Positions 13,224 to 28,406 of a DNA stretch of 33,200 nucleotides are shown piece by piece. The stretch's first letter is position 1. Every line of letters starts with the position of its first letter. The notes below the pieces were generated by a model. It made no database searches and was not told the origin of the DNA. It was given only the letters and a program-made list of their open reading frames with translations. The DNA comes from Sandarakinorhabdus oryzae (GTDB taxonomy: Bacteria > Pseudomonadota > Alphaproteobacteria > Sphingomonadales > Sphingomonadaceae). The DNA lies in NCBI RefSeq assembly GCF_009733735.1, contig NZ_WNJP01000015.1:1-33200 (forward strand), in the 5' to 3' direction. The position numbers and the translations under genes were made by a program.

Positions 13224-13295
13224 TCGTCACTGGCGGTCAGCATCGGGCGGCCGGGGTGAAAACGGGAAAGGGGCCAGGCAAACTGGCATGACGTT

Positions 13296-14690
13296 ATGAG
13301 CATTATTCAGCTGTTGCGTATTCTGGTGGCCCGGCGGTGGATCGTCTTTGGCTGCATGTTGCTGTCGCTGATCGTGGCGGGGGCTGTCGGCAAGATCCTG
13401 CCGGCGCGCTATCCGGCCACGGCTCGCGTGCTTATGGACAATTTCAAGCCCGACCCGGTGACGGGCACCATGATGAACGTCAATTCGCTGCGCGTCTTCA
13501 CCCGCACACAGATCGAGCTGATCAAGGATTATCGTATCGCTGGTGAAGCCGTCGACAAGCTGGGTCTGACCGACAATGCCGACCTGTTGGCGCAGTGGCA
13601 GGCGCAAACTGGTGGTTATGGCGATTTCCGCCGCTGGGTCGCCGATCGCATCATCGACAGCACCCGCGTGGACCTGATCGAGAATTCGAACATCCTGGCC
13701 ATCAATTATGAAGCCAGCAATCCCGAAGTCGCCCGCCGCACCGCCAACGCGCTGCGCGAAGCTTATATCGAGAACAGCCTGAAGTTCCGCACCGACAGTG
13801 CCGGCCGCACCGCCGAATGGTATCGCGAACAGGCCAACCGCGCCCTGAAAGCGCTGGAAGCCGCTGAATCTGCCAAGACCAAGTTCGAGCAGGAAAATGG
13901 CATCGTGATGACCGCGTCGGGCGAAGCCGAAACCGTGAAGCTGGCGAGCCTGCAGGCGGCGCTGACCGCGGCCCGCAGCAACGAGAGCATGCAGCAGTTC
14001 GAGGCGGTCAAGCAGGCCACAACGTCCAGCGTGGTCGATCAGCTCAAGGTGCAGCTGGCCACGCTCAACGACCAGATCGAGAGCGCTTCAGAACGGCTGG
14101 GCGTGCAGCACCCGACTTATCTCGCGATGCTGTCCCGCCGCCAGCAGCTGGAACGCCAGCTGGCGCGTGAACAGGTCGCGGCCCGCCAGGCCGGGGCGCA
14201 GCAGATGGGGGCCTCGCGCAGCAGCGTCGCCCAGATCGAGGCGTCCTATGAAGCCCAGCGCGCCAAGGTGTTCGCGATGAAGGAAAAGCTCGACAAGTTG
14301 AACCAGCTGGTTGGTGAAGTCGCGCTGCGCCGCGCCCAGTATGAGCAGGCGGCCAAGCGCACGGCCGACTTGCAGCTGGAATCAAACGTGGCTGATGCCG
14401 GCCTGATCGTGCTGGGCGATGCCACCGTTTCGGCCCAGCCGTCGTTCCCGAACTGGCCGCTGATCATCGGTCTTGCCGCCGGTGCCGGCCTCGCCCTTGG
14501 CGTGGTGACGGGCCTGTTCGTCGAATTGGTGAACCGGCGCGTGCGCGGGGCTGAGGATCTCAGCTTTGCCTCCCGTGTGCCGGTGTTTGCGGTCATTGCT
14601 GAACGCCGCAAGCCGGAATGGCACCAGTTCGTCAAGCGCATCCTGAGCCGTGGCAACGCCACTGCGTCAGGCATGCAGCCAGCCCAGTGA
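13296..14690 (+). CDS. Wzz/GumC-like polysaccharide co-polymerase
   Basis: An inner-membrane chain-length determinant of 464 residues. It has an N-terminal transmembrane helix (about residues 14-36), a periplasmic Wzz region, a long Gln/Arg/Ala/Glu-rich coiled coil (about 170-370), and a second transmembrane helix (about 388-412, IIGLAAGAGLALGVVTG). A short basic cytoplasmic tail follows. There is no kinase domain; that is encoded separately by the next gene, as in split PCP-2a systems. The ATG at 13296 is preceded by a purine-rich stretch and a 5-bp hairpin (13273-13287). A GTG of the next gene overlaps its stop. It probably docks the OPX protein on one side and the BY-kinase-like protein on the other. 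Confidence 0.93.
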   Translation: MSIIQLLRILVARRWIVFGCMLLSLIVAGAVGKILPARYPATARVLMDNFKPDPVTGTMMNVNSLRVFTRTQIELIKDYRIAGEAVDKLGLTDNADLLAQWQAQTGGYGDFRRWVADRIIDSTRVDLIENSNILAINYEASNPEVARRTANALREAYIENSLKFRTDSAGRTAEWYREQANRALKALEAAESAKTKFEQENGIVMTASGEAETVKLASLQAALTAARSNESMQQFEAVKQATTSSVVDQLKVQLATLNDQIESASERLGVQHPTYLAMLSRRQQLERQLAREQVAARQAGAQQMGASRSSVAQIEASYEAQRAKVFAMKEKLDKLNQLVGEVALRRAQYEQAAKRTADLQLESNVADAGLIVLGDATVSAQPSFPNWPLIIGLAAGAGLALGVVTGLFVELVNRRVRGAEDLSFASRVPVFAVIAERRKPEWHQFVKRILSRGNATASGMQPAQ

Positions 14691-14701
14691 GTACCCACGC
14701 C

Positions 14702-15628
14702 ATGGACAATGTCGAAACCGAAATTGGCGCTGAAACCGAAGTCGAAGCTGCGCCGGCGCACGACGCCGGCAGTGTTGACGGTGGTGAGCGTTATGATGCG
14801 CCGATCCGTGACGTGCTCACCCGGCTGGGCTTCCTCAGCCTCGACCAGGTCGCCAAGGTGCAGGCCCATGCTGCCGAGCGGGGCCTGGATTTTGACCAGG
14901 CCGCGCTGGAACTGGGCTTCATCACCACCGAGGATCTGGATCGCGCCCGCGAACAGCTGATCAACAGCCTGGCCCTGCAGAATATCGCCCGCCGTCCTGT
15001 GTCGGATGAACTGGTGGTGCTGTCGGACCCCGGTTCAGTGCGGGCGGAATCGATCCGCATGCTGCGCACCTCGATAATTGCCCAGCACATCAAGAACGGC
15101 CGTCGCGGCCTGGCCGTGGTGGCCACGGCCGATGGCCATGGCTGCTCGTGGGTCGCCGCCAATCTGGCGGTGGCGCTGAGCCAGGTCGGCTTCAAGATCC
15201 TGCTGGTCGATGCCAACATGCGCTCGCCGCGGCAGGACCAGATCTTCGGCCTCGATCCCAATGCGCCGGGCCTGTCGAGCTTCCTGTCGCTGCAGGTCGC
15301 CCGGCCGGAGCGCGTGGTCAATGCCAACGTCCTTCCCGGCCTGGCGCTGATCACCGCCGGCCCGCCGACCAGCCGCCCGCAGGAACTGCTGTCGGGCAAC
15401 CGGTTCCGCGACGGTGTCAACACGCTGCTGCGCGAATATGATCTGGTGATCTTTGACACGCCCGCCGCCAACACCAGCGCCGACGCGTTGAACGTCGGGG
15501 CAGGGGCCGCCTACGCGCTCGTCGTCGGCCGTTCAAACCACAGTTTCTACAAGGACATCAACACGCTGACCGATCAGCTGGCAGCCGCCCGCTGTGCCGT
15601 GGTCGGTGCGGTGTTGAACGAGTTCTAA
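14702..15628 (+). CDS. BY-kinase-like ATPase with MshEN-like N-terminus, degenerate Walker A
   Basis: A 308-residue cytoplasmic protein with two parts. Residues about 30-85 form two helical repeats (VLTRLGFLSLDQVAKVQ and ALELGFITTEDLDRARE) like the MshEN/GspE N-terminal domain, some members of which bind c-di-GMP. Residues about 105-308 are a CpsD/CapB-type P-loop domain with LLVDANMRSP (Walker A') and VIFDTPA (Walker B). The Walker A reads ADGHGCSW where the family has GEGKST, so the phosphate-binding Lys is replaced by Cys. There is no C-terminal tyrosine cluster. Kinase activity is thus doubtful and a regulatory or structural role with the Wzz protein is likelier. A GTG at 14687 overlapping the previous stop (GTGA) is an alternative start. 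The stop overlaps the exosortase start by one base. Confidence 0.85.
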   Translation: MDNVETEIGAETEVEAAPAHDAGSVDGGERYDAPIRDVLTRLGFLSLDQVAKVQAHAAERGLDFDQAALELGFITTEDLDRAREQLINSLALQNIARRPVSDELVVLSDPGSVRAESIRMLRTSIIAQHIKNGRRGLAVVATADGHGCSWVAANLAVALSQVGFKILLVDANMRSPRQDQIFGLDPNAPGLSSFLSLQVARPERVVNANVLPGLALITAGPPTSRPQELLSGNRFRDGVNTLLREYDLVIFDTPAANTSADALNVGAGAAYALVVGRSNHSFYKDINTLTDQLAAARCAVVGAVLNEF

Positions 15629-16524
15629 TGCCGGACCCGGGGGCGATCGCACCAGCAGCGGCGCCAGCCGCGACCGACTGGCGCCAGCTGCTGTCCGCGC
15701 ACTGGCCGTTGTGGCTGGGTGTGGCCTCCATGGCCGTGCCGACGCTGATCGCGCTGGCGCAGGGGCCGTGGCAGGAGGAATCCGGTGTGCACGGCATCAT
15801 CGTGCTGGTTACCGGCCTGTGGCTGGTCTGGCGCCGGCATGACGAGATCATGGCGGCCCGCACTGATGGCAACCCGGCGCTGACCATTGCCGCGCTTGCG
15901 CTGGCGGTGCCGCTCTATATCGCCGGGCGGGCCTTTGAATTCATCAGTATCGAAACTGCGGCGCTGCTGCTGGCGCTGGTTGCGGTCGCCCAGCAATATT
16001 GGGGCCTCAAGGTGGTGAAGAGCCTGTGGTTCCCGATCGTCTATCTGGGCTTTGTCATCCCGTTGCCGGGCTGGTTCCTCGATACGATCACGCTGCCGCT
16101 GAAGGAGTTCGTCTCGGAACTGGTGACGGGCGGCCTCGCTGCCGTGGGCTACCCGGTCGGCCGCATGGGGGTGACGCTCTATATCGGATCCTATCAGTTG
16201 CTGGTGGAAGATGCCTGCTCGGGCCTTAACTCGCTGATCAGCCTGACCGCCATCGGCCTTTTCTATGTCTATCTCATCCGCGGCTCCAACCCGCTCTATT
16301 CGCTGCTGTTGCTCGCGATGGTGATCCCGATCGCGATCGCCGCCAATTGCGTGCGGGTGGCGGCGCTGGTGCTGATCACCTATCATTTCGGCAACGCCAT
16401 GGCGCAGGGCTATCTCCACAATTTCGCCGGCATGGTCACCTTCGTGTCGGCCCTGCTGTTCATCTTCGCGCTCGATTGGGTGCTCACCCCGCTGCGCCGT
16501 CGCCTGGAAAGCAAGCCGGCATGA
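15628..16524 (+). CDS. xrtV: Exosortase (sphingomonad type, probably XrtV)
   Basis: A multi-spanning inner-membrane cysteine transpeptidase of 298 residues that cleaves C-terminal PEP-CTERM-like sorting signals. About eight hydrophobic segments are present. All three catalytic residues are visible: Cys197 in EDACSGLNSL, Arg243 in ANCVRVAALV and His264 in GYLHNFAG. Also typical is PIVYLGFVIPLPGWFLD. Unlike XrtA of beta- and gammaproteobacteria, EpsI is a separate gene directly downstream (ATGA overlap). The link to the V subtype rests on that layout, the sphingomonad context and the nearby small membrane protein, and is an inference. No protein with a recognisable sorting tail is encoded in the window. 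Confidence 0.93.
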   Translation: MPDPGAIAPAAAPAATDWRQLLSAHWPLWLGVASMAVPTLIALAQGPWQEESGVHGIIVLVTGLWLVWRRHDEIMAARTDGNPALTIAALALAVPLYIAGRAFEFISIETAALLLALVAVAQQYWGLKVVKSLWFPIVYLGFVIPLPGWFLDTITLPLKEFVSELVTGGLAAVGYPVGRMGVTLYIGSYQLLVEDACSGLNSLISLTAIGLFYVYLIRGSNPLYSLLLLAMVIPIAIAANCVRVAALVLITYHFGNAMAQGYLHNFAGMVTFVSALLFIFALDWVLTPLRRRLESKPA

Positions 16525-17219
16525 GCGGGATCAGTCGCCGTGATGTGCTGATGGGCGGCGCCCTCCTGGCCGGTGCCACAGGTGCGGCCGCGCTGATGCC
16601 GCGCAATCGCCTGGTGCTGATGCCGCAAGGCCATGAGCTTGAGAAGTTCGTGCCCGAAACGCTGGGCAGTTGGCACCACGTGCCCAGCCCCGGCATCGTC
16701 ATGCCGCGTACCGAGGGCAGCTTGTCGGCTAAGCTCTATGGCCAGGTGCTGAGCCGGGTCTATGTCTCCCAGACCCAGCTGCCGGTGATCCTGGTGATGG
16801 CCTATGGCCCGATCCAGAACGACCTGTTGCAGCTGCACCGCCCGGAAGTCTGCTACACGGCGGTCGGCTTTGCCGTATCGGGCACGACCCCGGCGCTGCT
16901 GCCCTTGCGGCCGGGCGTGGACCTGCCGATCCGCGAGCTTGTCGCCCAGTCGGAACAGCGCACCGAAACCATCACCTATTGGACCCGGATTGGCGATGAT
17001 CTGCCGACCAACGGCACCGAACAGCGCATCGCCAAGCTGAAACAGCAATGGGCTGGCTATATTTCCGATGGCATATTGGTGCGGCTGAGCTGCGCGGTGC
17101 CGCCGGAGCCAGGTGTGCGTGACCAGCTTGCGGCCTTTGCGCGCGAACTGGTGCAGGCGGTGCCGCTGGCGGATCGGCCGGCGCTGGTGGGGCGGCCAAT
17201 AGCCGCCAGGCTAGCCTGA
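16521..17219 (+). CDS. epsI: EpsI-family exosortase-associated protein
   Basis: A 232-residue exported protein of the EpsI family (DUF3485), which always accompanies exosortases in EPS loci; its exact activity is not established. The signature HRPEVCY lies at residues 106-112, preceded by VILVMAYG, and a conserved Trp (GSWH) follows the N-terminal segment. The N-terminus (MSGISRRDVLMGGALLAGAT) looks like a twin-arginine signal with RR directly before the hydrophobic core, which would mean export in folded form. The ATG at 16521 overlaps the exosortase stop; the longer frame upstream is a shadow of the exosortase gene. Confidence 0.9.
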   Translation: MSGISRRDVLMGGALLAGATGAAALMPRNRLVLMPQGHELEKFVPETLGSWHHVPSPGIVMPRTEGSLSAKLYGQVLSRVYVSQTQLPVILVMAYGPIQNDLLQLHRPEVCYTAVGFAVSGTTPALLPLRPGVDLPIRELVAQSEQRTETITYWTRIGDDLPTNGTEQRIAKLKQQWAGYISDGILVRLSCAVPPEPGVRDQLAAFARELVQAVPLADRPALVGRPIAARLA

Positions 17220-17239
17220 TGCGTGCTCGCCGGGCCTGG

Positions 17240-17497
17240 TCAGCCCTGCTTGAAGGGCTGAAGAACGCGCCAGATGAAACCGATGGTGGCGATGAACAGC
17301 GCCACGGCGCCCGCATGCATCACCACTTCGCCGGACTTCATCGCTTCGTTGCCGATGTAATTGGTCACCGCACAGCCGACCGCGGCCACCATATATTGCC
17401 AGAGATGATCACGGGCTTCACCCTGACTGCGCTGCAGAAACAGCACGATCAGGCCCGCGAAGGTCATCACCGTCAGCCAATCATATGGCGTTTCCAT
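17240..17497 (-). CDS. Small two- or three-helix membrane protein, possible exosortase accessory protein
   Basis: An 85-residue protein on the strand opposite to its neighbours. Hydrophobic segments lie at about residues 7-21 (WLTVMTFAGLIVLFL), 33-47 and 60-78 (VVMHAGAVALFIATIGFIW). A charged loop QRSQGEARDHLWQ separates the first two. The ATG at 17497 has a GGGAG ribosome site 7-8 bases upstream. It sits between epsI and the initiating sugar transferase. I believe similar small proteins accompany sphingomonad exosortase V loci and have been called accessory proteins, but I cannot verify that here and no function is known. The frame is convergent with epsI, with only 20 bases between the stops. 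Confidence 0.7.
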   Translation of the reverse strand: METPYDWLTVMTFAGLIVLFLQRSQGEARDHLWQYMVAAVGCAVTNYIGNEAMKSGEVVMHAGAVALFIATIGFIWRVLQPFKQG

Positions 17498-17604
17498 GCA
17501 CGCTACTCCCTCGGACCGACCTCTATAGCAATTCGCGGCAGGCTGACCAGACTATTTAGGACCGTGTGTGCCAATTCATCGGTACTGTTGATCGGGGCTG
17601 CGCC

Positions 17605-19071
17605 ATGAACAGCCAGAATCCGATCACGCCACCTGCCCCTGACGTTACAGCTGTTGCTGGCGGCCCCGGCGTCCCGCTCAGCCTGGCGATCCTGATCGTT
17701 CGGATGCTGGAATTCCTCGCGGTGGGCGGCAGCGGTCTGTGGCTGATCGCGTCGGCGCCGACGGATCTGGGCTTTAACGACGAGCTTTATGCCCGCATCA
17801 CCCTGATCGCCAGCCTGGCCTTTGCCGTGCTGGCCGAAAGCCTGGGCAGCTACGATATCGAAGCGCAATTCTCGCTGCGGCTGGGCTGGCGGCGGGTGCT
17901 GATGGCCTGGACGATGGCCGCCCTGTTCCTGATCACCATGGGCTTCCTGCTGAAATCGTCGGAAAACGTGTCGCGCGCCTGGGCGATCAGCTGGTTTGCC
18001 ACCGGCGGCGTCGCGCTGCTGTTCACCCGCGTGGTCACCACCATGTGGGTACGCCGCCTCAAGCAACGTGGCACCTTCAATGAACGCGTCGCCATCTTCG
18101 GTGCCGGACCGCAGGGCGTGCGCTTTGCCGAATATGTGCAGGCGCACGATCGGCTGACCATCACCCTGGTCGGCATCTTTGATGATCGCCGGCCCGATCG
18201 GTTGCCAACCGAAGCCGCGGGCGTGCCGGTGCTGGGCAATCTTTCCACGCTGATTGGCATGATCCGCGATGGCCTGATCGATCAGGTGGTGGTGGCGCTG
18301 CCCTGGGCCGCCGAACGCCGCCTGCAAGACGTGATGGCGCGGCTGGTGCTGACGCCGGTGAAGGTGCGGCTGGCGCCTGACCTCGTATCCTTCACCTTCG
18401 CGCACCGGCCGGTCGTCATCCTGGGCGACGTGCCGGTGATGACCCTGTTCGAACGGCCGATCTCCGGCCTGTCGGGCATTGCCAAGACGATCGAAGACAA
18501 ATTGCTGGCGGCGCTGATCCTGGTGGCGGTGTCGCCGATCATGCTGCTGGCGGCGCTGGCCGTGCGGCTGGACTCGTCGGGCCCGATCCTGTTCCGCCAA
18601 CCGCGCGAAGGTTTCAACAACAGCACCTTCCGCTGCTTCAAGTTCCGCACGATGTATCACGACCAGCTGGAGTACAAGAACATCAACCAGGCCAGCCGTG
18701 ATGATCCGCGCATCACCCGGGTCGGCCGGTTCCTGCGGCGCACCAGCATCGATGAACTGCCGCAGCTGTTCAACGTGCTGATGGGTGACATGTCACTGGT
18801 CGGGCCACGCCCGCACGCCGCCTCCACCCGGGCCGGCGGTCGGCTGTTTTCCGATGTGGTGCAAAGCTATGCCGCACGTCACAAGGTGAAGCCGGGCATC
18901 ACTGGCTGGGCGCAGGTGCGCGGCTGGCGCGGCGAGACCGACACCGAAGAGAAGCTGATCAAGCGGATCGAGCACGACCTCTATTACATCGAGAACTGGT
19001 CGATCTGGCTCGATCTCTACATTCTGGTGCGCACTGTCGGTGCCGTTCTGCTGCCCAGGAACGCCTTCTGA
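17605..19071 (+). CDS. Undecaprenyl-phosphate sugar phosphotransferase (WbaP/WcaJ/GumD type)
   Basis: Initiates EPS repeat-unit synthesis by moving a sugar-1-phosphate to undecaprenyl phosphate at the inner membrane. The 488-residue protein has about four N-terminal transmembrane helices and a CoA_binding_3-like Rossmann region (VAIFGAGPQGVRFAEY, then VGIFDDRRPDR). The catalytic C-terminal domain begins at IEDKLLAALILVAVSP. Diagnostic motifs there are FRCFKFRTMY, SIDELPQLFNVLMGDMS, LVGPRPHA and KPGITGWAQVRGWRG. The ATG at 17605 is used; an in-frame upstream codon at 17566 adds 13 unconvincing residues. Donor sugar is probably glucose, by family. It is the last gene of the EPS block before the 3-HP genes. 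Confidence 0.94.
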   Translation: MNSQNPITPPAPDVTAVAGGPGVPLSLAILIVRMLEFLAVGGSGLWLIASAPTDLGFNDELYARITLIASLAFAVLAESLGSYDIEAQFSLRLGWRRVLMAWTMAALFLITMGFLLKSSENVSRAWAISWFATGGVALLFTRVVTTMWVRRLKQRGTFNERVAIFGAGPQGVRFAEYVQAHDRLTITLVGIFDDRRPDRLPTEAAGVPVLGNLSTLIGMIRDGLIDQVVVALPWAAERRLQDVMARLVLTPVKVRLAPDLVSFTFAHRPVVILGDVPVMTLFERPISGLSGIAKTIEDKLLAALILVAVSPIMLLAALAVRLDSSGPILFRQPREGFNNSTFRCFKFRTMYHDQLEYKNINQASRDDPRITRVGRFLRRTSIDELPQLFNVLMGDMSLVGPRPHAASTRAGGRLFSDVVQSYAARHKVKPGITGWAQVRGWRGETDTEEKLIKRIEHDLYYIENWSIWLDLYILVRTVGAVLLPRNAF

Positions 19072-19153: not shown

Positions 19154-19183
19154 TTGCCGTTGGCGTCTTGGCAGAGACATAAT
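19154..19183 (+). promoter_or_regulatory. Candidate sigma70-type promoter for pcs-mcr
   Basis: TTGCCG (19154-19159) and CATAAT (19178-19183) are separated by 18 bases, matching the consensus at 4 of 6 and 5 of 6 positions. This would start transcription near 19190 and leave a leader of about 80 bases before pcs. It is the best-looking promoter in the 198-base gap after the sugar transferase gene. The call is by eye only. Confidence 0.45.
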
Positions 19184-19215
19184 CTTTCCCTAAGCGCTGC
19201 CTTCATCAAAGTTTC

Positions 19216-19269: not shown

Positions 19270-22200
19270 ATGTACGATCCCGCCGCCGCTTCGCGTGCGC
19301 CTGTTCCGATCCCCGGTGTCAACCCGGTGCGCACCCGTGCCGACTGGGATGCTATGCGCGCCGCCGTGCTGGCCGATCCCGGCGCGTTCCACGGCGATAT
19401 CGCGGCGCGCAACCTGCACTGGCTGGTGGCTGTCGATGGCCGCACGGCGTGGCTGAGCCGCGATGCGCAGGGCCGCTGGAGCGGCTGGGACGCTGACACC
19501 GCTGCCCCGGTGACGGCCGACCTGCCCGCCGATTTTGCGCCCTGGACCCGCGCCTTCAATGCCGATGACGCGCCCAATTTCCGCTGGTTCGAAGGCGGCC
19601 GCACCAATGCTGCCTTCAACGAGCTTGATCGCCACGTGCTGGCCGGCCACGGCGCTGAAACCGCCTTCATCTTCGAAGGCGACCGTTGGGACCTGGCCGC
19701 CAATAATGGTCGCGGCGCCCCGGTTGATTGCGTGTCGGTCTCGCGCCGCCAACTGCTGCTCGAAGCCGCCAAGTGCGCGATTGCCTTGCAGAAGCTCGGC
19801 CTGAAGGCCGGCGACCGCATCGCGCTCAACATGCCCAACATCCCGGCCCAGCTCTACTGGACGGAAGCGGCCAAGCGCATCGGTGTCATCTACACGCCGG
19901 TCTTCGGCGGCTTTTCCGACAAGACATTGTCGGATCGCATCCACGATGCCGGCGCGCGCATCGTCATCACCGCCGACGGTGGCTATCGCAACGCCCAGAT
20001 CGTGCCGTTCAAGACGGCCTATACCGACCCGGCGCTCGACAATTATGTGCCGGTCAATGTCGCGCTGCGTTTGCTCACTGATCGTCTGGGCGGCGAAGAC
20101 CTTGGCTTGTCTGACGCCACCCGCACGGCCATGTCCGGCATCGTCACGGCGGCGCTGAAGGGCGAAGTCACTGTCGAGCGCGGCGACGTCATGCGCGGGC
20201 TGGGCCGGGCGCTGGCGGAACTGGGCAAGGACGGCCTGGTTGATGCCGCGCAATCCGCCCGCATCCGCATCGCCATCGCCGAGGCACTGGTCAGCACGCC
20301 GCCGCGCGTGGAGGCGGTGATTGTCGCCAATCACACCCATGTGCCCGATCTGGTCTGGCGTGACCGCGATCTGTGGAGCCATGACCTGACCAACGCCGCG
20401 CTGGCTGATATTCTCACCGCCGCGGGCCTGCCCGATGAGGCGGCGCTGCACGCGCTGGACGATGAAGCCTTCGTGGCCGCGATCTGGAAAGCGTCGAAGC
20501 CGCTGCCGGTCGATGCCGAATATCCGTTGTTCTTCATCTACACCTCGGGTTCGACCGGCAAGCCGAAAGGCGTCGTCCATGTCCATGGCGGCTATGCCAG
20601 CGGCATCATGGAGACGATGAAGGTCGCGTTTGACGCGCGTCCGGGCGACACCATCTTCGTTGTCGCCGATCCGGGCTGGATCACCGGCCAGAGCTACATG
20701 ATTGCCGCCGCGCTGCTGAGCCGAGTCACCACCGTGCTGGCCGAAGGCTCGCCGGTGTTCCCGCATGCCGGGCGCTTTGCCGCGATGATCGAGAACCACG
20801 GCGTCACCATCTTCAAGGCGGGCGTGACCTTCCTGAAGGCGGTGATGACCGATCCGCAGAACCTCACCGACATCAAGGCCTATGACCTGTCGAAGCTGCG
20901 GGTCGCCACCTTCTGCGCCGAGCCCTGCTCCCCGCCGGTGCAGGATTTCGGCATGAAGAACATCACGCCGCAATATATCAACAGCTATTGGGCGACCGAG
21001 CATGGCGGCATCGCCTGGACGCATTTCTATGGCAATGGCGATTTCCCGTTGGCGGCCGATGCCCGCACCTTCCCGCTGCCGTGGATCGTGGGCGACGTGT
21101 GGGTGGAAGACGAAGCCGGCGACAGGCAAGCGACCGCGCTGCTGACCCGCGAGGGCAGCGACGGCGTGATGTGGCGCAAGGCCGGCAAGGGCGAGAAGGG
21201 CGAGATCATCATCGCCGCGCCCTATCCCTATCTGGCGCGCACCGTCTGGGGCGATCCGGAGAATTTCCGCGTGGAAGATGGCGTGGTTGCCTCTGGCTGG
21301 GCGGGCGACTCGGTGCGCTGGCGCGATGGTTATTGGAGCCGCTGGCAGGGCGTGTGGGCCTATACCCAGGGCGATTTCGCCGTGCAGGGCGATGATGACG
21401 GCTTCTCGCTGCATGGCCGCTCGGATGACGTGATCAACGTCTCCGGCCACCGCATGGGCACCGAGGAGATCGAAGGCGCCATCCTGCGCGACAAGGCGCT
21501 GAACCCGGAAAGCCCGGTCGGCAATGTGCTCGTCGTTGGCGCGCCGCACCGCGAGAAGGGGTTGACGCCGCTCGCCTTCATCACGCCGGCCCCCGGCCAG
21601 ATCATCACCCGTGATGACGAGCGTCGCTTGGCTGATCTGGTGCGTAACGAAAAGGGCGCCGTGGCCGTGCCGGGCGATTTCATCACGGTGAGCCAGTTCC
21701 CCGAAACCCGCAGCGGCAAATATATGCGCCGCATGGTGCGGGCGCTGGTGGAAGGCACGCCCATTGGCGACGTCACCACGCTGAAGAACCCGGAAAGCCT
21801 GGACGAGCTGAAGCGCGCCATCACCAAATGGGAGCGCAAGCAGCGCCTGTCGGAAGACCAGGATATCTTCGACCGCTATCGCTATTTCCGTATTCAATAC
21901 AACACGGTCGCGCCGGGCAAGAAGGTGGCGACGGTGTTCATCACCAACCCGCCGGTGAACGCGCTCAACGAACGCGCCATCGATGAACTGGTGATCGTCG
22001 TCGAGCATCTGTCGCGCCGTGACGATGTGGCCGCCGTGGTGTTCACCGGTGACGGCACCGCCAGCTTCGTCGCCGGCGCCGACATTCGCCAGTTCCTTGA
22101 AGAAATCCACACCGTCGAGGAAGCCCGCGTGCTGCCGGCCAACGCCCAGCTGGCGTTCGGCAAGATCGAGCAGATGGGCAAGCCCTGCGTGGCGGCCATC

Positions 22201-24783
22201 CAGGGCGTGGCGCTGGGCGGCGGCATGGAGTTCGCACTGGCCTGCCATTATCGCGTGGCGGAATCGCACGCACGCTTCGGCCAGCCTGAAATCCGCCTGC
22301 GCCTGTTGCCCGGCTATGGCGGCACCCAGCGCCTGCCGCGCCTGCTCACCGATCGGCGCGGGCCAGAGGGGATGCTCGACGCGCTCGATCTGATCCTGGG
22401 TGGCCGCAGCGTCGAAGCGTCGGCCGCGCTCGAGATGGGCGCCATCGATGCCATCGCCGATGGCTCAAATGACGCGCTCAGCCTCGCCCACGCCGCCGTG
22501 CGTGAGTTCGTCCGGCTCGGCGACACCAGCCATCTCGGCCGCGCCTGGGCCGAACGCCGCAAGGCCGCCAAGAGCGCGTGGCAACATGAAGGCCATGTCG
22601 ATCTTGATGCCGCGCTGAGCGATGCGTTCGTCCAGCGCATCCTGAAGCAGCTGGAATGGGCCGGCCGCGGCAAGGCTGGCGAGCGCGCCATCGACGCGAT
22701 CCGCACCGGCTGGAACCAGGGCATGGCCGCCGGCCTCGCCCGCGAAGCCGAATTGTTCGCGCAGGCCGTGGTCGACCCCGATGGCGGCAAGACCGGCATC
22801 CGCCTGTTCATGGACAAAAAGGCGCCGCCGCTGCCCGTCCGCCGCGACGGCGTCCATGTCGAAGCCGAATTCGACGCCAAGGCCCAGCGCCTGGAAGCGG
22901 CCGGCGACCTGCTGCCGGTCGGCGCGCCCTTCTTCCCCGGCATCACCCCGATCCCCGGCCATCAATATGGCTTCGGCATTGCGCGCAGCCCGGATACCGG
23001 CGCGCCGCAGTTCGGCCCGCCAGCGACCCACGAAAAGCAGCTGATCGTGCCGACGCCGCAGCCGGAGCCGAACGAGGCCTTGGTCTACATGCTCAGCTCG
23101 GAGGTCAACTTCAACGATATCTGGGCGTTGACCGGCATCCCCGTCTCCCCGTTCGACAATCACGAGGAGGATGTGCAGCTCACCGGCTCCGGCGGCCTCG
23201 CGCTGGTCGCGGCGCTGGGCAGCGAAGTGCGCGGGCAGGGCCGCCTCAAGGTCGGTGATATGGTGGCGGTCTATTCCGGCACCTCCGATCTCCTGTCCCC
23301 GCAGGCCGGGCGCGATCCGATGTATGCCGATTTCGCCATCCAGGGTTATGAGACCAAGTCGGGCAGCCACGCCCAGTTCCTCACCGTGCAGGCGCCGCAG
23401 TTGCACCCGGTGCCCGGCGATCTGACGCTGGAACAGGCAGGCAGCTACATTCTCAACCTCGGCACCATCTGGCGCTGCCTCTACACCACGCTGGAAATCG
23501 TTGGCGGCAAGACCATCTTCATCGAAGGCAGCGCCACCGGCACCGGCCTTGATGCGCTGAAATCGGCCAAGGCCAGCGGCCTCGCCGTGACCGGCCTGGT
23601 TTCCAGCCCGGCGCGTGCCGAATTCGTGAAGTCGAAGGGCGCCGTCGGCGCGCTCGACCGCACCGATCCGCGCTTCAAGTCGCTGTTCACGCCGGTGCCC
23701 GATGGCAGCAAGGCCGACTGGGCGGCGTGGGAAGCCGCAGGCGAGGCGCTGGTGGCCGAATACAAGGCCATCAATGGTGGCAAGCTGGCGGATTATGCCG
23801 TCTCTCACGCCGGCGAAACCGCCTTCCCGCGCTCGTTCCAGCTGCTGGGCGACGGCGGCGTGCTCGCTTTCTACGGCGCCTCGTCGGGCTATCACCTCAG
23901 CTTCATGGGCAAGAAGGGCGGCTCCGACCCCGTCTCCATGCTGGCGAAAGCGGGTGCGCGCGGCGGTGAGGCGGTGCTGATCTTCTATGGCCCGGGCACC
24001 ACCCAATTGGCCGACGAGACCGGCCTGGAGATGATCGAGGCCGCCCGCGGCTTGGGCTGCCGCATCGTTGTCGTCACCAACACCGATGGCCAACGCGAGT
24101 TCATCCTCAGCCTCGGCTTTGAAGACGCGGTGGCCGGCGTCGTCTCCCTCGAAGGCATCAAGCGGCGGGAGGGCGCCAATTTCGATTGGCCCGATACCAT
24201 GCCGCGGCTTCCGGTCGCCCGCGAGGATATCGAGAATTTCCGCGAGGCCGTGCGCCAGTTCCAGGACAAGACGCTGAAGCCGTTCGGCAACGCCGTCGGC
24301 AAGCTGCTGCGTTCGCCCGACAATCCGCGCGGCAACCCGGATATCGTGCTGGAACGTGCCGGGCAGGACACGCTGGGCGTGACGACGGCACTGGTGAAGC
24401 CGTTCACCGGCCGCGTGGTCTATTGTGAAGACATGGCCGGCCAGCGCTACAATTTCTACGCCCCGCAGGTGTGGACCCGCCAGCGCCGCATCATCATGCC
24501 GATGGCGGAAATCCGCGGCACCCACCTGTGCAACGCCTACGAAGTCACCCGTATGAACGACATGATCGCGGCCGGCATCCTGGATGTGACCGAGCCAACG
24601 GTGGTGCCGTGGGAGGGCCTGCCGGAGGCGCACCAGAGCATGTGGGACAACCGCCACACCGGCGCGACCTATATCGTCAACCACGCGCTGCCGGCGATGG
24701 GTTTGCGCGGCAAGGATGAACTCTACGAAGCGTGGGCGTCCCTTGGGGCGTCGTTGAGCGCAGACAAGGGGCAGGGGGAATGA
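19270..24783 (+). CDS. pcs: Propionyl-CoA synthase (3-HP-CoA ligase/dehydratase/acrylyl-CoA reductase)
   Basis: A trifunctional cytoplasmic enzyme of 1837 residues, close to the 1822 of Chloroflexus. It converts 3-hydroxypropionate + CoA + ATP + NADPH to propionyl-CoA. Domain 1 (about 70-860) is an acetyl-CoA-synthetase-type ligase: TSGSTGKPKG at 425-434, WATEHGG, GRSDDVINVSGHRMG, and the modifiable Lys817 in TRSGKYMRR. Domain 2 (about 875-1150) is a crotonase with AGADIRQF and both catalytic glutamates, Glu987 (LGGGMEFAL) and Glu1007 (FGQPEIRLR). Domain 3 (about 1255-1837) is an MDR-type enoyl-CoA reductase related to crotonyl-CoA carboxylase/reductase: EVNFNDIWAL at 1278-1287 and the NADPH motif EGSATGTGL at 1419-1427. 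All active-site motifs are intact. The ATG at 19270 is preferred over a TTG at 19234, which lies inside the leader stem. It overlaps mcr by ATGA. Confidence 0.96.
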   Translation: MYDPAAASRAPVPIPGVNPVRTRADWDAMRAAVLADPGAFHGDIAARNLHWLVAVDGRTAWLSRDAQGRWSGWDADTAAPVTADLPADFAPWTRAFNADDAPNFRWFEGGRTNAAFNELDRHVLAGHGAETAFIFEGDRWDLAANNGRGAPVDCVSVSRRQLLLEAAKCAIALQKLGLKAGDRIALNMPNIPAQLYWTEAAKRIGVIYTPVFGGFSDKTLSDRIHDAGARIVITADGGYRNAQIVPFKTAYTDPALDNYVPVNVALRLLTDRLGGEDLGLSDATRTAMSGIVTAALKGEVTVERGDVMRGLGRALAELGKDGLVDAAQSARIRIAIAEALVSTPPRVEAVIVANHTHVPDLVWRDRDLWSHDLTNAALADILTAAGLPDEAALHALDDEAFVAAIWKASKPLPVDAEYPLFFIYTSGSTGKPKGVVHVHGGYASGIMETMKVAFDARPGDTIFVVADPGWITGQSYMIAAALLSRVTTVLAEGSPVFPHAGRFAAMIENHGVTIFKAGVTFLKAVMTDPQNLTDIKAYDLSKLRVATFCAEPCSPPVQDFGMKNITPQYINSYWATEHGGIAWTHFYGNGDFPLAADARTFPLPWIVGDVWVEDEAGDRQATALLTREGSDGVMWRKAGKGEKGEIIIAAPYPYLARTVWGDPENFRVEDGVVASGWAGDSVRWRDGYWSRWQGVWAYTQGDFAVQGDDDGFSLHGRSDDVINVSGHRMGTEEIEGAILRDKALNPESPVGNVLVVGAPHREKGLTPLAFITPAPGQIITRDDERRLADLVRNEKGAVAVPGDFITVSQFPETRSGKYMRRMVRALVEGTPIGDVTTLKNPESLDELKRAITKWERKQRLSEDQDIFDRYRYFRIQYNTVAPGKKVATVFITNPPVNALNERAIDELVIVVEHLSRRDDVAAVVFTGDGTASFVAGADIRQFLEEIHTVEEARVLPANAQLAFGKIEQMGKPCVAAIQGVALGGGMEFALACHYRVAESHARFGQPEIRLRLLPGYGGTQRLPRLLTDRRGPEGMLDALDLILGGRSVEASAALEMGAIDAIADGSNDALSLAHAAVREFVRLGDTSHLGRAWAERRKAAKSAWQHEGHVDLDAALSDAFVQRILKQLEWAGRGKAGERAIDAIRTGWNQGMAAGLAREAELFAQAVVDPDGGKTGIRLFMDKKAPPLPVRRDGVHVEAEFDAKAQRLEAAGDLLPVGAPFFPGITPIPGHQYGFGIARSPDTGAPQFGPPATHEKQLIVPTPQPEPNEALVYMLSSEVNFNDIWALTGIPVSPFDNHEEDVQLTGSGGLALVAALGSEVRGQGRLKVGDMVAVYSGTSDLLSPQAGRDPMYADFAIQGYETKSGSHAQFLTVQAPQLHPVPGDLTLEQAGSYILNLGTIWRCLYTTLEIVGGKTIFIEGSATGTGLDALKSAKASGLAVTGLVSSPARAEFVKSKGAVGALDRTDPRFKSLFTPVPDGSKADWAAWEAAGEALVAEYKAINGGKLADYAVSHAGETAFPRSFQLLGDGGVLAFYGASSGYHLSFMGKKGGSDPVSMLAKAGARGGEAVLIFYGPGTTQLADETGLEMIEAARGLGCRIVVVTNTDGQREFILSLGFEDAVAGVVSLEGIKRREGANFDWPDTMPRLPVAREDIENFREAVRQFQDKTLKPFGNAVGKLLRSPDNPRGNPDIVLERAGQDTLGVTTALVKPFTGRVVYCEDMAGQRYNFYAPQVWTRQRRIIMPMAEIRGTHLCNAYEVTRMNDMIAAGILDVTEPTVVPWEGLPEAHQSMWDNRHTGATYIVNHALPAMGLRGKDELYEAWASLGASLSADKGQGE

Positions 24784-27700
24784 ACGCCATGGGCAAGACG
24801 ACGGCGCAGGCCGCGCAAACGGGCCGGCTGGCCGGCAAGGTGGCGCTGATCACCGGGGCGGCCGGCAACCTGGGCGGCAGCATCGTGCGGCGCTACCTGG
24901 CTGAAGGCGCGACCGTGGTGATGAGCGGCCGCGACGCCGCCCGCACCCAGGCCGCGCTGGATGCCGCGGTGGCCGAGGTGGGCGGCACCGCCAGCATCGT
25001 CACCATGGACGGTTCCGACATCGAATCCGTGCGCGCCGGCATTGCCGAGGTGGTCGGCCGCCATGGCCGCATCGACGTACTGGTCAACAACGCCGGTTCG
25101 GCTGGCCCCAAGCAGGTGCTGGGTGATCTGCCGCTGCTGCGCGACGAACTGGACGGCACGCCCGACAGCGAGACGGTGGGCGACGCTGCCCGCAACATCA
25201 TGGTGGTGGCCTGGAACCTCGTCCGCGCCGCCGCCCCGGCGATGGGCGAGGGTGGCAGCATCATCAACGTCTCCACCATTTTCAGCCGTACCGATTATTT
25301 CGGCCGCGCCGCATACACGGTGCCCAAGGCCGCGCTCAACATCCTGTCCAAGGGCCTGGCGCGCGAGCTCGGCACGCGCGGCATCAGGGTGAACCAGCTC
25401 TATCCCGGCCCGATTGCGTCCGAACGCATCCGCACCGTCTTCGCTGCCATGGACAAATTGAAGGGCGATGACGCTGGCAGCACCGCCAATCATTTCTTCA
25501 ACCTGATGGCGCTCGAACGCAGCGTCGATGGCGAGCCCAGGGCCAAGACCTTCCCGACGCCGGCCGATATCGCCAATGCCTGCGTGTTCCTTGGCTCGGA
25601 CGAGAGCGCGGCCTTTGCCGCCCATGATTTCGAAGTCACCCACGGCATGGCGGTGCCGCTCGAATCGCGCAGCGAATTCCTGCACCGGCCTGATCTGCGT
25701 GCCATCGATGGCGATGGCCACGGCATCCTGATCTCCGCCGGCAACCAGCTGGACGACGCTCTGGCGATGGCCGGGCTGTTCGCCGGGCAGGGGGCCAAGG
25801 TGCTGCTTGGCTTCCACGCCCAGGCCGCGCTTGATGACGCGGCGGAGCGTCTGCCGGCGGGTGTGAAAGCCGTGCGCTTCCCGCGCCACGATCACCTGGC
25901 GATGGACGCCGAACTGGCCCGTTTCACCGCCCATGTGGCGCCCATCGATGGCGCCATCATCCTGCCGACGCGCGGTCCAGGCTATTTCACCGGCGCACTG
26001 GCCGAGGCTGGCGATGCGGCGGTGGAGCGCTTTGTCGACGATGAGCTGGAAGGCGCCATCGCGGTTGCCCGCACGCTCGATCGCTACTGGCAGCAGGGCC
26101 AGGATCTGCCCGGCGATCCGCGCGTGCTGTTCATCACCAACCCGGATGATGGCGCCGGCAATGGCTGGGCCGATGTGGGTCGCGCCGCTATCGAGGAGTT
26201 GCTGCGCGTGTGGCGGGACGAAGCCCGTGTCGCCAGCCAGCAGGGCAAGACGCCGCGCCCGGTGTGGGGCAACCAGATTGTCCGCTTCGGCAACAACGAG
26301 CCGGAAAATCGCGACTTTGCCGCCGGCCATGCAGCCCGCTTGCTGCTCGGCGGCCGTGAGGTCGATGCCATCAATCTCTATATCCCGGCCAGCATCGCCA
26401 AGGCGACCGGCGCCCGCCGCGCGCTGGCGGGCACGGCCGAGAACATCACCGGGCTGCACCTGGGCAAGGTGGCGCTGATCACCGGCGGTTCGGCCGGCAT
26501 CGGCGGTGCGCTCGCCCGGCTGCTGGCGCTGGCCGGCGCCAAGGTGATGATGGTCGCCCGCCGCGAGAGCGAGCTTGATGCCGCGCGCGAACGCATCGTG
26601 GGCGAACTGCAGGATATCGGCTTTGCCGGTGTGGAGCGCCGGGTGCGCACGCTGGCCGGCATCGATGTGGCCGACATGAAGAGCCTGAAGCACGCCGTTG
26701 ACGAGACAGTGCGCGCCTTTGGCCGCATCGATTATCTGATCAACAATGCCGGCGTGTCGGGGGCCGAGGAGATGGCGGTGGACATGGGGGTCGACGCCTT
26801 CCGCCACACCCAGTTCGCCAATCTCATCTCCAACTATGCCCTGATGCACATGGTGGTGCCCATGATGCGCCGCCAGGGCTCGGGCTATATCCTCAATGTT
26901 TCGAGCTATTTCGGCGGCGAGAAGTTCCTCGCCGTCTCCTATCCCAACCGCACCGACTATGCGGTGTCGAAATCCGGCCAGCGCGCCATGGTCGAATCCA
27001 TGGCCCGCCACCTCGGCCCGGAAATCCAGATCAACGCCATTGCGCCAGGCCCAGTGGATGGTGACCGGCTGGCGGGTCTCGGCGGCAAGCCCGGCCTGTT
27101 CGAGCGGCGCGGCCGGCTGATCCTCGAGAACAAGCGCCTCAATGCCGTCCACGCCGCCGTCATCAAGGCGGTGCGCGGCGGCGCGCCGGTGGCACAAGTG
27201 CTCTCGCGCCTGTCACGCAACGACAGCGTGCAACTCAGCCACGACAAGGCCAACCCGCAGGCGCTGCGCGACCTGGCGCTGGCCTGTGCGCGCGAGGGCG
27301 ATGAAAGCTGCTGCTGGGATCGCTACATCCTCACGCCCGTGCTGGCCGCCAAGCTGCTGAAGCGCCTGCGGCTGGGCGGCTGGCTGATCGGCACCGACTG
27401 GCAGGACCGTGACGAGAATGACTGGCTGCTGCGGGTGCCGCCCGATGACATGCCGTGGCTGCCGGTCGCCCAGATCGGCCGCGAAGCCGCCAAGGTGCGC
27501 GGCGGCGTGCTGAGCCAGCTCCACCTCGGCAAGATGCCGACCGAGACCGAAGTGGCGCAGGCGACGGTGTTCTTCCTCGCCGATCGCGCCGTCTCGGGCG
27601 AAACCTTCATGCCGTCAGGCGGCCTCAACGTCGAACGCTCGCACACCGAGCGCGAACTGTTCGGCAGCCCCAAGGCCGAGCGCCTGGCCCAGATGGGCGG

Positions 27701-28406
27701 CAAGACCGTGTGGCTGGTGGGTGAGCATCTCGCCGATTATCTCGGCGCCGCCGCCCAGGGTTTCCTCGATTGCGACGTGGCGCGCGTGGTGCTGGTCACC
27801 GCCAGTGCAGCGGGTGCTGCAGCGATCAAGGCCAATATCAGGGACAGCGGTGACCGAGTGGAAAGCCTGGTCATTGACGGCGATATCGAGAGCGCGATGG
27901 ACGCGGCGCTGGCAACGTGGGGTCACCCGACCACCATCGTCTCCACCCCGCTCAAGGCCCTGCCCGACCAGCTGTTCGACGCCGACAGTCCGCTGGATGG
28001 CGACGGCTTTGCCGACGTGGTCGAGCACAACCTGACCCATCATTTCCGCATCGCCCGCAAGGTCTCGCTGTTCGATCAGTGCCAGCTTGTGCTGGTCTCG
28101 CCCGATGTGCCGATGGGCGAGGGGGCCAAGGGTGCGTTTGCGCTGGCCAACTTCGTCAAGACGACGCTGCACGCCTTCACCGCCACCATCGCGGTGGAAA
28201 ATGAGCGTCTTGTCCACGAGGTGGCAGTGAACCAGATCAACCTCACCCGCCGCGTGCGTTCGGAAGAGCCGCGCAACGCCGGCGAGCACGAGGAAGAGGT
28301 CCGCCGCTTCGCCCGTGCCGTGCTGCTGGCCGGGGCGCCGCTGCCGGATGCCGAGGACAGTCGTTATCGCAGCCGCATCTATCGCGGCATGTCGCTGACG
28401 GTGTGA
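24780..28406 (+). CDS. mcr: Bifunctional malonyl-CoA reductase
   Basis: A 1208-residue NADPH-dependent enzyme (Chloroflexus form about 1220) that reduces malonyl-CoA to malonate semialdehyde (C-terminal half) and then to 3-hydroxypropionate (N-terminal half). Half 1 has the SDR motif ITGAAGNLGG (from residue 24), NNAGSAGPKQ, VSTIFSR and the catalytic Tyr179/Lys183 in YTVPK. Half 2 has KVALITGGSAGIGG (Thr568), INNAGVSGAEEM, LNVSSYFGGEKFLAVSYPNR and Tyr727/Lys731 in YAVSK, then NAIAPGPVDGDRL. Each half is followed by a second, non-catalytic Rossmann-like region, as in the family. The C-terminal segment (FALANFVKTTLHAFTATIAV) also matches. Similarity extends over the whole length. A strong AGGGGG ribosome site precedes the ATG, and the four-base overlap with pcs couples the two. 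Its product 3-HP is the substrate of Pcs. Confidence 0.97.
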   Translation: MNAMGKTTAQAAQTGRLAGKVALITGAAGNLGGSIVRRYLAEGATVVMSGRDAARTQAALDAAVAEVGGTASIVTMDGSDIESVRAGIAEVVGRHGRIDVLVNNAGSAGPKQVLGDLPLLRDELDGTPDSETVGDAARNIMVVAWNLVRAAAPAMGEGGSIINVSTIFSRTDYFGRAAYTVPKAALNILSKGLARELGTRGIRVNQLYPGPIASERIRTVFAAMDKLKGDDAGSTANHFFNLMALERSVDGEPRAKTFPTPADIANACVFLGSDESAAFAAHDFEVTHGMAVPLESRSEFLHRPDLRAIDGDGHGILISAGNQLDDALAMAGLFAGQGAKVLLGFHAQAALDDAAERLPAGVKAVRFPRHDHLAMDAELARFTAHVAPIDGAIILPTRGPGYFTGALAEAGDAAVERFVDDELEGAIAVARTLDRYWQQGQDLPGDPRVLFITNPDDGAGNGWADVGRAAIEELLRVWRDEARVASQQGKTPRPVWGNQIVRFGNNEPENRDFAAGHAARLLLGGREVDAINLYIPASIAKATGARRALAGTAENITGLHLGKVALITGGSAGIGGALARLLALAGAKVMMVARRESELDAARERIVGELQDIGFAGVERRVRTLAGIDVADMKSLKHAVDETVRAFGRIDYLINNAGVSGAEEMAVDMGVDAFRHTQFANLISNYALMHMVVPMMRRQGSGYILNVSSYFGGEKFLAVSYPNRTDYAVSKSGQRAMVESMARHLGPEIQINAIAPGPVDGDRLAGLGGKPGLFERRGRLILENKRLNAVHAAVIKAVRGGAPVAQVLSRLSRNDSVQLSHDKANPQALRDLALACAREGDESCCWDRYILTPVLAAKLLKRLRLGGWLIGTDWQDRDENDWLLRVPPDDMPWLPVAQIGREAAKVRGGVLSQLHLGKMPTETEVAQATVFFLADRAVSGETFMPSGGLNVERSHTERELFGSPKAERLAQMGGKTVWLVGEHLADYLGAAAQGFLDCDVARVVLVTASAAGAAAIKANIRDSGDRVESLVIDGDIESAMDAALATWGHPTTIVSTPLKALPDQLFDADSPLDGDGFADVVEHNLTHHFRIARKVSLFDQCQLVLVSPDVPMGEGAKGAFALANFVKTTLHAFTATIAVENERLVHEVAVNQINLTRRVRSEEPRNAGEHEEEVRRFARAVLLAGAPLPDAEDSRYRSRIYRGMSLTV

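What the first reader, a model, noticed from the sequence alone, without database searches (positions are those of the whole stretch)
19270..28406. Complete pcs-mcr pair of the 3-hydroxypropionate pathway fused into one coupled operon
Two giant genes overlap by ATGA and have all catalytic residues in place: Pcs with Lys817, Glu987 and Glu1007; Mcr with Tyr179/Lys183 and Tyr727/Lys731. Together they reduce malonyl-CoA to propionyl-CoA through free 3-HP. The established home of these enzymes is the Chloroflexus bi-cycle; related genes occur in Erythrobacter/Porphyrobacter-type organisms that lack the full cycle. In this window no carboxylase, methylmalonyl-CoA mutase or malyl-CoA lyase is present. 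The role may therefore be electron sinking, assimilation of 3-HP, or CO2 entry by acetyl- and propionyl-CoA carboxylases.
Basis: partly seen in the sequence, partly recalled or inferred. Interest (0 to 1): 0.85.

Follow-up and report, generated by a model that had tools for sequence, protein, structure and literature searches.

The report
Carbon-fixing enzyme pair in light-using bacterium
A light-using bacterium carries two giant enzymes that turn malonyl-CoA, made from acetyl-CoA, into propionyl-CoA, probably to build four-carbon compounds with extra CO2; the enzyme pair itself is already known from its relatives.

Summary
Window 19270-24783 (+) encodes a 1837-aa propionyl-CoA synthase (Pcs), 24780-28406 (+) a 1208-aa bifunctional malonyl-CoA reductase (Mcr); they overlap by ATGA, are not fused, and keep every tested catalytic residue. 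The genome belongs with Sandarakinorhabdus (S. limnophila Pcs 95% identical) and has photosynthetic reaction-centre genes, AccA- and AccD-like carboxyltransferases, PccB/PccA-like proteins, methylmalonyl-CoA mutase and isocitrate lyase. Crotonyl-CoA carboxylase/reductase and two marker enzymes of the bi-cycle's second half were not found. Best reading: a linear, CO2- and NADPH-consuming route from acetyl-CoA to succinyl-CoA in a photoheterotroph, not autotrophy. Support: mcr follows pcs in 61 of 62 fetched loci holding both; 45 of 50 pcs-positive genomes tested have reaction-centre genes; Pcs and Mcr distances agree closely (0.94), Pcs and PufLM much less (0.42); in 28 relatives, not here, accA lies directly behind mcr. 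The pair, the CO2 co-assimilation idea and an association of the 3HP cycle with anoxygenic phototrophy are in print. A new member of a known kind; one library search found no paper on the accA linkage. No expression, activity or labelling data exist here.

The parts
19270..24783 (+). pcs: propionyl-CoA synthase, 1837 aa, ATG start (the mechanical ORF begins at TTG 19234)
   Evidence: PDB 6eqo 2827 bits over residues 23-1825; 95% and 92% identical to the two named Sandarakinorhabdus orthologues L072 and L086
20440..21720 (+). Pcs CoA-ligase part (best AMP-binding and AMP-binding_C stretches), holds Lys817
   Evidence: Pfam PF00501, PF13193; Lys817 in 84 of 84
21922..22458 (+). Pcs enoyl-CoA hydratase part, holds Glu987 and Glu1007
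   Evidence: Pfam PF00378; conservation
23539..23889 (+). Pcs dehydrogenase (enoyl-CoA reductase) part, nucleotide-binding stretch
   Evidence: Pfam PF00107; below-cut-off similarity to crotonyl-CoA carboxylase/reductase TIGR01751
24780..28406 (+). mcr: bifunctional malonyl-CoA reductase, 1208 aa, ATG start
   Evidence: PDB 8hi4 1171 bits over 15-1208, 6k8s 1056 bits
24855..25649 (+). Mcr N-terminal SDR domain (malonate semialdehyde reduction), Tyr179/Lys183
   Evidence: Pfam PF13561; residues in 61 of 62
26466..27065 (+). Mcr C-half SDR domain (malonyl-CoA reduction), Tyr727/Lys731
   Evidence: Pfam PF00106; residues in 62 of 62
24780..24783 (+). ATGA start/stop overlap of pcs and mcr (translational coupling inferred)
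   Evidence: direct from sequence; a -4 overlap in 9 of 61 pairs, window included, under a simple start-codon rule
19176..19194 (+). block GACATAATCTTTCCCTAAG upstream of pcs, similar in the 5 other Sandarakinorhabdus-type loci printed; possible promoter element
   Evidence: by-eye comparison of six upstream regions; one sigma-70-like match at 19154-19183, about as many such matches as in shuffles

Best explanation
A two-gene unit encodes Pcs and bifunctional Mcr, which reduce malonyl-CoA (2 NADPH) to free 3-hydroxypropionate and then (ATP, CoA, 1 NADPH) to propionyl-CoA (stoichiometry recalled). In this phototroph I infer that the pair is the middle of a linear assimilation route: acetyl-CoA carboxylase, Mcr, Pcs, propionyl-CoA carboxylase and B12-dependent methylmalonyl-CoA mutase, giving succinyl-CoA from one acetyl-CoA plus two CO2 equivalents. 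It would replenish C4 intermediates while spending light-derived ATP and reductant and saving organic carbon, beside an isocitrate lyase of the glyoxylate shunt, which uses two acetyl-CoA instead. Shown: the genes, residues, partner genes and reaction-centre genes. Inferred: flux direction, light dependence, carbon saving, translational coupling.
For: Full-length matches to solved chains and conserved residues. Own genome: two PF00124 genes; AccA and an AccD-like PF01039 match; a PccB-like protein, 785 bits to TIGR01117 (below its cut-off of 998.8), with a biotin carboxylase/biotin-carrier protein 1.2 kb downstream; methylmalonyl-CoA mutase, 1201 bits; isocitrate lyase, 1066 bits, PDB 6g1o; no crotonyl-CoA carboxylase/reductase over cut-off. 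Order pcs-mcr in 61 of 62 loci with both, of 84 loci examined. PF00124 in 45 of 50 pcs-positive genomes, against 4 of 35 pcs-negative relatives outside the genus (kinship not corrected for). Distance correlation Pcs-Mcr 0.94, Pcs-PufLM 0.42, n=44. accA directly behind mcr in 28 relatives. Porphyrobacter ULC335: 3HP-bicycle genes up by day (PMC10674011, passages).
Against: No expression, enzyme or labelling data for this organism. Isocitrate lyase is also present, so the route is not a plain replacement of the glyoxylate shunt. Five of 50 pcs-positive genomes lack PF00124 matches, two of them Aneurinibacillus. Relatives with reaction-centre genes but without pcs exist (G012, G026, G029, G046 and, by a fragment, G037). 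Pcs-PufLM correlation, though weak, is still positive (permutation p 0.001), and no vertical marker was compared. No enrichment of TGTN12ACA upstream of pcs: 3 of 81 against 3.4 expected. A metagenome study did not detect propionyl-CoA carboxylase in AAP bacteria (PMC11089705, passages), and the PccB-like score here is below the model's cut-off. Epimerase and malate synthase were not looked for. accA is not beside mcr in the window.
Confidence: 0.65

Rival explanations
1. 3-HP (or acrylate) assimilation: Pcs takes 3-HP from outside to propionyl-CoA, and Mcr is an accessory.
For: Pcs alone does 3-HP to propionyl-CoA (recalled); Aneurinibacillus (L094, L113) and one Rhodocyclaceae genome (L112) hold pcs with no mcr in the flank held.
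Against: mcr follows pcs in 61 of 62 loci that hold both, and accA follows mcr in 28, which points to malonyl-CoA as the source; the link with reaction-centre genes is not expected.
Confidence: 0.13
2. Reductant sink and propionyl-CoA supply (odd-chain lipids, polyhydroxyvalerate, methylcitrate) rather than C4 replenishment.
For: The two enzymes consume three NADPH per acetyl unit (recalled); isocitrate lyase is already present.
Against: PccB/PccA-like and methylmalonyl-CoA mutase genes are present to carry propionyl-CoA on; methylcitrate and PHA genes were not searched for.
Confidence: 0.13
3. Part of a complete 3-hydroxypropionate bi-cycle for autotrophy.
For: Pcs and Mcr are bi-cycle key enzymes; three Burkholderiales loci carry CoA-transferase, Mct-, Mcl- and Mch-like genes beside pcs-mcr.
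Against: Own genome: no PF19315 match and only a 360-bit Mct-like protein, cut by a contig end, whose relatives sit in acyl-CoA dehydrogenase/thiolase operons. Mcl, Smt and Meh were not searched for.
Confidence: 0.05
4. Silent or decaying acquired genes.
For: None found.
Against: Intact ORFs, invariant residues, presence in 22 of 24 genomes of the genus.
Confidence: 0.02

Closest known systems
Pcs and Mcr of Erythrobacter sp. NAP1 (locus L069) and Mcr of Erythrobacter/Porphyrobacter dokdonensis (L114)
   Same: Same enzymes and order pcs-mcr; NAP1 has reaction-centre genes; solved structures match the window proteins (which chain is from which of these strains is recalled)
   Different: Pcs 68% (NAP1) and 70% (dokdonensis) identical; no -4 overlap; accA follows mcr in E. 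dokdonensis but not in NAP1 or the window
Chloroflexus 3-hydroxypropionate bi-cycle
   Same: Pcs 59% identical over nearly full length; same reactions expected
   Different: In 12 of 13 Chloroflexota loci no mcr in the flank held, in one (L109) it lies upstream of pcs; Mct over cut-off in 4 of 8 Chloroflexota genomes tested, not here
Burkholderiales bi-cycle gene sets (PMC9802188, section 7 read)
   Same: pcs followed by mcr; four Burkholderiales Pcs are sister to the clade with the window (support 91, quick tree)
   Different: There two CoA-transferase genes and Mct-, Mcl- and Mch-like genes precede pcs-mcr on one strand (L066, L073, L095); here only the pair
Ethylmalonyl-CoA pathway and glyoxylate shunt
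   Same: Would serve the same end, C4 from acetyl-CoA
   Different: No Ccr over cut-off in the genus; isocitrate lyase present alongside

Membership tests
Propionyl-CoA synthase | Ligase, hydratase and reductase parts in one chain, full-length match to a solved Pcs | tested here: met
   (6eqo is deposited as acetyl-coenzyme A synthetase; that it is NAP1 Pcs is recalled)
Propionyl-CoA synthase | Ligase lysine and two hydratase glutamates | tested here: met
   K817, E987, E1007; their roles are taken from the finding and from general knowledge
Propionyl-CoA synthase | 3-HP to propionyl-CoA activity with ATP and NADPH | not testable with these tools
   needs purified protein
Bifunctional malonyl-CoA reductase | Tandem SDR architecture, full-length match to solved Mcr | tested here: met
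Bifunctional malonyl-CoA reductase | YxxRxxY and YxxxK in both active SDR domains, malonyl-CoA-binding arginines | tested here: met
   motif and arginines from PMC10470521 passages, arginines matched by offset only
3-hydroxypropionate bi-cycle | Acetyl-/propionyl-CoA carboxylases and methylmalonyl-CoA mutase in the genome | tested here: met
   PccB-like score below the model's cut-off; AccD by PF01039 match only; epimerase not tested
3-hydroxypropionate bi-cycle | Mesaconyl-CoA hydratase (Mch) | tested here: not met
   PF19315: 0 matches in G000; the model finds 6 of 11 Chloroflexota genomes, some weakly
[quoted passage not shown]
   TIGR04253 cut-off 725 bits; own best 360 bits over 2-376 of 403, cut by a contig end
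3-hydroxypropionate bi-cycle | Malyl-CoA lyase, Smt transferases, Meh | not tested
Anoxygenic phototroph | Type II reaction-centre genes | tested here: met
   two PF00124 genes within G000:C257:20829-22490

The most novel reading that the evidence does not exclude
pcs-mcr(-accA) is a separate, horizontally mobile half-cycle: a light-coupled acetyl-CoA carboxylation module that unrelated proteobacterial phototrophs acquired repeatedly and independently of their photosynthesis genes, and for which part of them recruited a carboxyltransferase subunit of their own. It would be a standing third way, next to the glyoxylate shunt and the ethylmalonyl-CoA pathway, to make C4 acids from acetyl-CoA, run mainly in the light.
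Probability: 0.4. Interest if true: 0.66.

Novelty: new member of a known kind. Interest (0 to 1): 0.42.

Why it matters
How light lets heterotrophic bacteria save organic carbon is an open question with weight for aquatic carbon budgets. If this pair carries light-driven CO2 entry, the potential for it in phototrophic Sphingomonadales can be counted from one gene pair, and a deletion in a cultivable Sandarakinorhabdus or Porphyrobacter strain tests it. The accA linkage in relatives is a concrete, checkable sign of which way the pathway runs.

Tried and rejected
Second half of the bi-cycle in a disguised form: the 290-390-bit Mct-like gene of many pcs-positive Sphingomonadales was followed to its neighbours in six genomes. 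In L198 and L203 family scans show acyl-CoA dehydrogenases and thiolases around it; L199, L201 and L202 have the same genes by similarity; in G000 (L200) the gene is cut by the contig end, with a homologue of the L198 thiolase beside it. Rejected as bi-cycle evidence. Pcs-mcr as a replacement of the glyoxylate shunt: rejected, isocitrate lyase is in the own genome; NF005074 passes its cut-off in 26 of 50 pcs-positive genomes, 22 more have weaker matches, many in 430-470-aa frames that I did not confirm one by one, 2 have none. PpsR-type control: no enrichment of TGTN12ACA (motif recalled; the control shuffled single bases only). Simple joint transfer of the pair with the photosynthesis genes: not supported, though not excluded for single lineages. 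PF19315 also catches generic MaoC-type proteins and scores Chloroflexus Mch weakly, so its 35 of 46 was not used as a tally.

Rows dropped before counts: one search kept 80 of 317 stretches. One search used 50 of those 80; left out were six Sandarakinorhabdus-like loci (L044, L045, L046, L062, L072, L086), 13 Chloroflexota and 11 others (L088, L096, L102, L110, L114, L117-L122). The PufLM comparison used 44 of 47 fetched pairs, those with Pcs and Mcr as well; genomes with split, partial or single puf hits (G359, G368, G371, G395) were not fetched, and of genomes with two puf sets only one was. The AccA tree has only 5 stand-alone AccA sequences and some long branches, so 'second copy' against 'moved housekeeping gene' stays open; one AccA 2 kb behind mcr (L065) groups with the stand-alone ones.
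Full report
WHAT IS THERE. The window is one whole contig (C57) of a 3.27-Mb, 431-contig, 99%-complete genome. Two long ORFs on the + strand are a 1837-aa Pcs (19270-24783) and a 1208-aa Mcr (24780-28406) that overlap by ATGA. Pcs matches the solved chain 6eqo over residues 23-1825 with 2827 bits (its deposit name reads acetyl-coenzyme A synthetase; that it is the Erythrobacter NAP1 Pcs is recalled). Mcr matches 8hi4, 8hjw and 6k8s. The pair is not fused.

SURROUNDINGS. To the left lies an exopolysaccharide cluster with exosortase V, EpsI type V, chain-length and export proteins and an undecaprenyl-phosphate glucose transferase, and further left dTDP-rhamnose genes. To the right are a ParA-type ATPase, a weakly MerR-like protein, IHF alpha, FabH, PlsX and the start of RecN. 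The sugar transferase recurs upstream of pcs in 10 other loci, all of the genus by their kinship to the window on the Pcs tree, but not in L072 (S. limnophila); PlsX recurs downstream in 5 others, L072 included.

WHOSE GENOME. The closest named Pcs is Sandarakinorhabdus limnophila DSM 17366, 95%; S. cyanobacteriorum has 92%. G001, a genome of the same genus as the window, has a contig of the same length as the S. limnophila record and hits at the same places, so the genus is taken to be Sandarakinorhabdus. pcs is present in 22 of 24 genomes of the genus, own included; PF00124 (reaction centre) genes are also in 22 of 24. G012 has reaction-centre genes without pcs, G019 has neither, and G004 (75% complete) has pcs without reaction-centre genes. 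In a draw of 289 genomes of the class, 3 besides the own one had pcs.

PARTNER GENES IN THE OWN GENOME. Methylmalonyl-CoA mutase (1201 bits, cut-off 876) and isocitrate lyase (1066 bits, cut-off 446) pass their models (PDB 6g1o for the lyase). Carboxyltransferase matches include C381, an AccA by similarity, and C37, AccD-like by its PF01039 match only. C24 carries a 521-aa PccB-like protein (785 bits to TIGR01117, below its cut-off of 998.8) and 1.2 kb downstream a biotin carboxylase with a biotin-carrier end, which together look like propionyl-CoA carboxylase. Crotonyl-CoA carboxylase/reductase passes its cut-off in 11 of 60 genomes, none of the genus. PF19315 (mesaconyl-CoA hydratase) gave no match in the own genome. 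TIGR04253 (mesaconyl-CoA transferase) gave 360 bits in a gene cut by a contig end (cut-off 725), whose relatives sit in acyl-CoA dehydrogenase/thiolase operons. Epimerase, malate synthase, malyl-CoA lyase, Smt and Meh were not searched for in the own genome.

RELATIVES. A scan of named genomes found 317 stretches encoding Pcs relatives; 80 were kept. With four more loci, 84 were examined: 62 hold mcr, in 61 of them downstream of pcs on the same strand, in one Chloroflexota locus (L109) upstream. Of 13 Chloroflexota loci, 12 show no mcr in the flank held. Of 10 other loci without mcr, 7 end within or close behind pcs; L112 (8 kb held downstream), L113 (8 kb) and L094 (3 kb) lack it there. A -4 overlap occurs in 9 of 61 pairs, window included, if the first ATG or GTG from 40 bases before the stop is taken as start. 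A quick tree (LG+G4, SH-aLRT only) places the clade with the window, mostly Sphingomonadales, as sister to four Burkholderiales sequences (support 91). In three of these (L066, L073, L095) two CoA-transferase genes and Mct-, Mcl- and Mch-like genes stand before pcs-mcr on one strand, in the order of the Chloroflexus cluster, with 67-81% identity to their Chloroflexus counterparts (gene names smtA, smtB, mct, mcl, mch by recall and family match). L063 shows the last two before its contig ends. Complete bi-cycle gene sets in Burkholderiales are already in print (PMC9802188, section 7 read).

LINK WITH PHOTOTROPHY. Of 50 pcs-positive genomes, 45 carry PF00124 genes over the cut-off; without are two Aneurinibacillus (L094, L113) and three assemblies (L052, L060, L085). 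Among 35 pcs-negative relatives outside the genus, 4 have them, one by a fragment (Fisher tests, not corrected for kinship; the two sets were drawn differently). That the 3HP cycle and anoxygenic photosynthesis go together was reported before as a trait association (PMC10239486, passages). Over 44 genomes the pairwise distances of Pcs and Mcr correlate at 0.94, those of Pcs and PufLM at 0.42, both with permutation p 0.001. Aerophototrophica (Rhodospirillaceae) has a Sphingomonadales-type Pcs (clade support 99) but its PufLM falls in a clade of Beta-, Gamma- and other Alphaproteobacteria (99); NAP1 and other Erythrobacter are together by PufLM (100) but apart by Pcs. The pair thus looks inherited as a unit and at least in part without the photosynthesis genes, yet mostly ends up in phototrophs. 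No vertical marker was compared.

ACCA. Directly behind mcr, on the same strand, 28 loci carry accA (PF03255, 426 and 427 bits in the two scanned); in L050 it is cut by the contig end; a further one, L065, has it 2 kb away. On the Pcs tree these 28 are L055, the 28-row clade beside it except L071 and L088, whose contigs end, and L070. The mcr-linked AccA sequences of 27 loci form a clade (96/89) apart from the stand-alone AccA of NAP1 and of four genomes of the window's genus; only these five stand-alone sequences were at hand and some branches are long. The window has no accA beside mcr. That a subunit for malonyl-CoA synthesis is tied to Mcr in relatives argues for the direction acetyl-CoA to propionyl-CoA. 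The paper search for malonyl-CoA reductase, propionyl-CoA synthase, accA and operon returned one paper, the Chloroflexus genome (listing only), so I found no report of this linkage in that library; subscription journals are mostly missing from it.

WHAT IS IN PRINT. Porphyrobacter sp. ULC335 is said, like Erythrobacter NAP1, to make key enzymes of the 3HP bicycle, to be able to co-assimilate CO2, to lack a full fixation pathway and to have these genes up by day (PMC10674011, passages). AAP bacteria in Microcystis aggregates, Sandarakinorhabdus among the genera, are credited with an incomplete 3HP bicycle, propionyl-CoA carboxylase not detected (PMC11089705, passages); the PccB/PccA-like pair found here does not agree with that last point. 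Anoxygenic photosynthesis and the 3HP cycle are reported as associated traits, with a Sandarakinorhabdus bin named (PMC10239486, passages). Zarzycki 2009, Bernhardsgruetter 2018 and Hauruseu 2012 could not be read and are known only from citations and memory.

CONCLUSION. The finding is real and correctly identified, and belongs to a known kind. The best-supported working model is a linear, light-supported, CO2-consuming route from acetyl-CoA to succinyl-CoA beside isocitrate lyase. What goes beyond the texts I saw is the accA linkage, the partly separate ancestry of pair and photosystem, and the conserved pcs-mcr order in Proteobacteria against Chloroflexota.

Noticed in passing
L128:106-15390 (-), L129/L146, L132 (Burkholderiales, same contigs as L066, L073, L095): Two CoA-transferase genes, Mct-, Mcl- and Mch-like genes, pcs and mcr lie on one strand in a single run, colinear with the Chloroflexus cluster: most of the bi-cycle's special genes in one place.
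   Followed up: partly
L049:17281-18213 and 27 further loci, directly behind mcr: accA (acetyl-CoA carboxylase carboxyltransferase alpha) follows mcr; its AccA forms a clade apart from the five stand-alone AccA sequences compared. Copy number per genome unknown.
   Followed up: partly
L094 and L113 (Aneurinibacillus): A Bacillota genus with full-length Pcs, 58-59% identical, no mcr in the flank held and no PF00124 match in the genome: Pcs may serve another purpose there.
   Followed up: no
L198:8378-9586, L199:9004-10257, G000:C68:3-1124: A Mct-like class III CoA-transferase (290-390 bits to TIGR04253) in acyl-CoA dehydrogenase/thiolase operons of many pcs-positive Sphingomonadales; substrate unknown.
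   Followed up: partly
window 10963-19071 (+): Exosortase V / EpsI-V exopolysaccharide cluster immediately upstream of pcs, also beside pcs in several other loci of the genus.
   Followed up: partly
L057 (Sphingomonas psychrolutea) mcr: The aligned Mcr lacks its N-terminal active-site region (gap at 164-183), perhaps a split frame or an assembly error.
   Followed up: no
window 19176-19194: Conserved block upstream of pcs in six Sandarakinorhabdus-type loci, possible promoter or regulator site.
   Followed up: no
L105, L107, L109, L111 (Chloroflexota): These pcs-bearing genomes gave neither a PF19315 match nor a TIGR04253 match above generic level, so some Chloroflexota may also hold a truncated version.
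   Followed up: no
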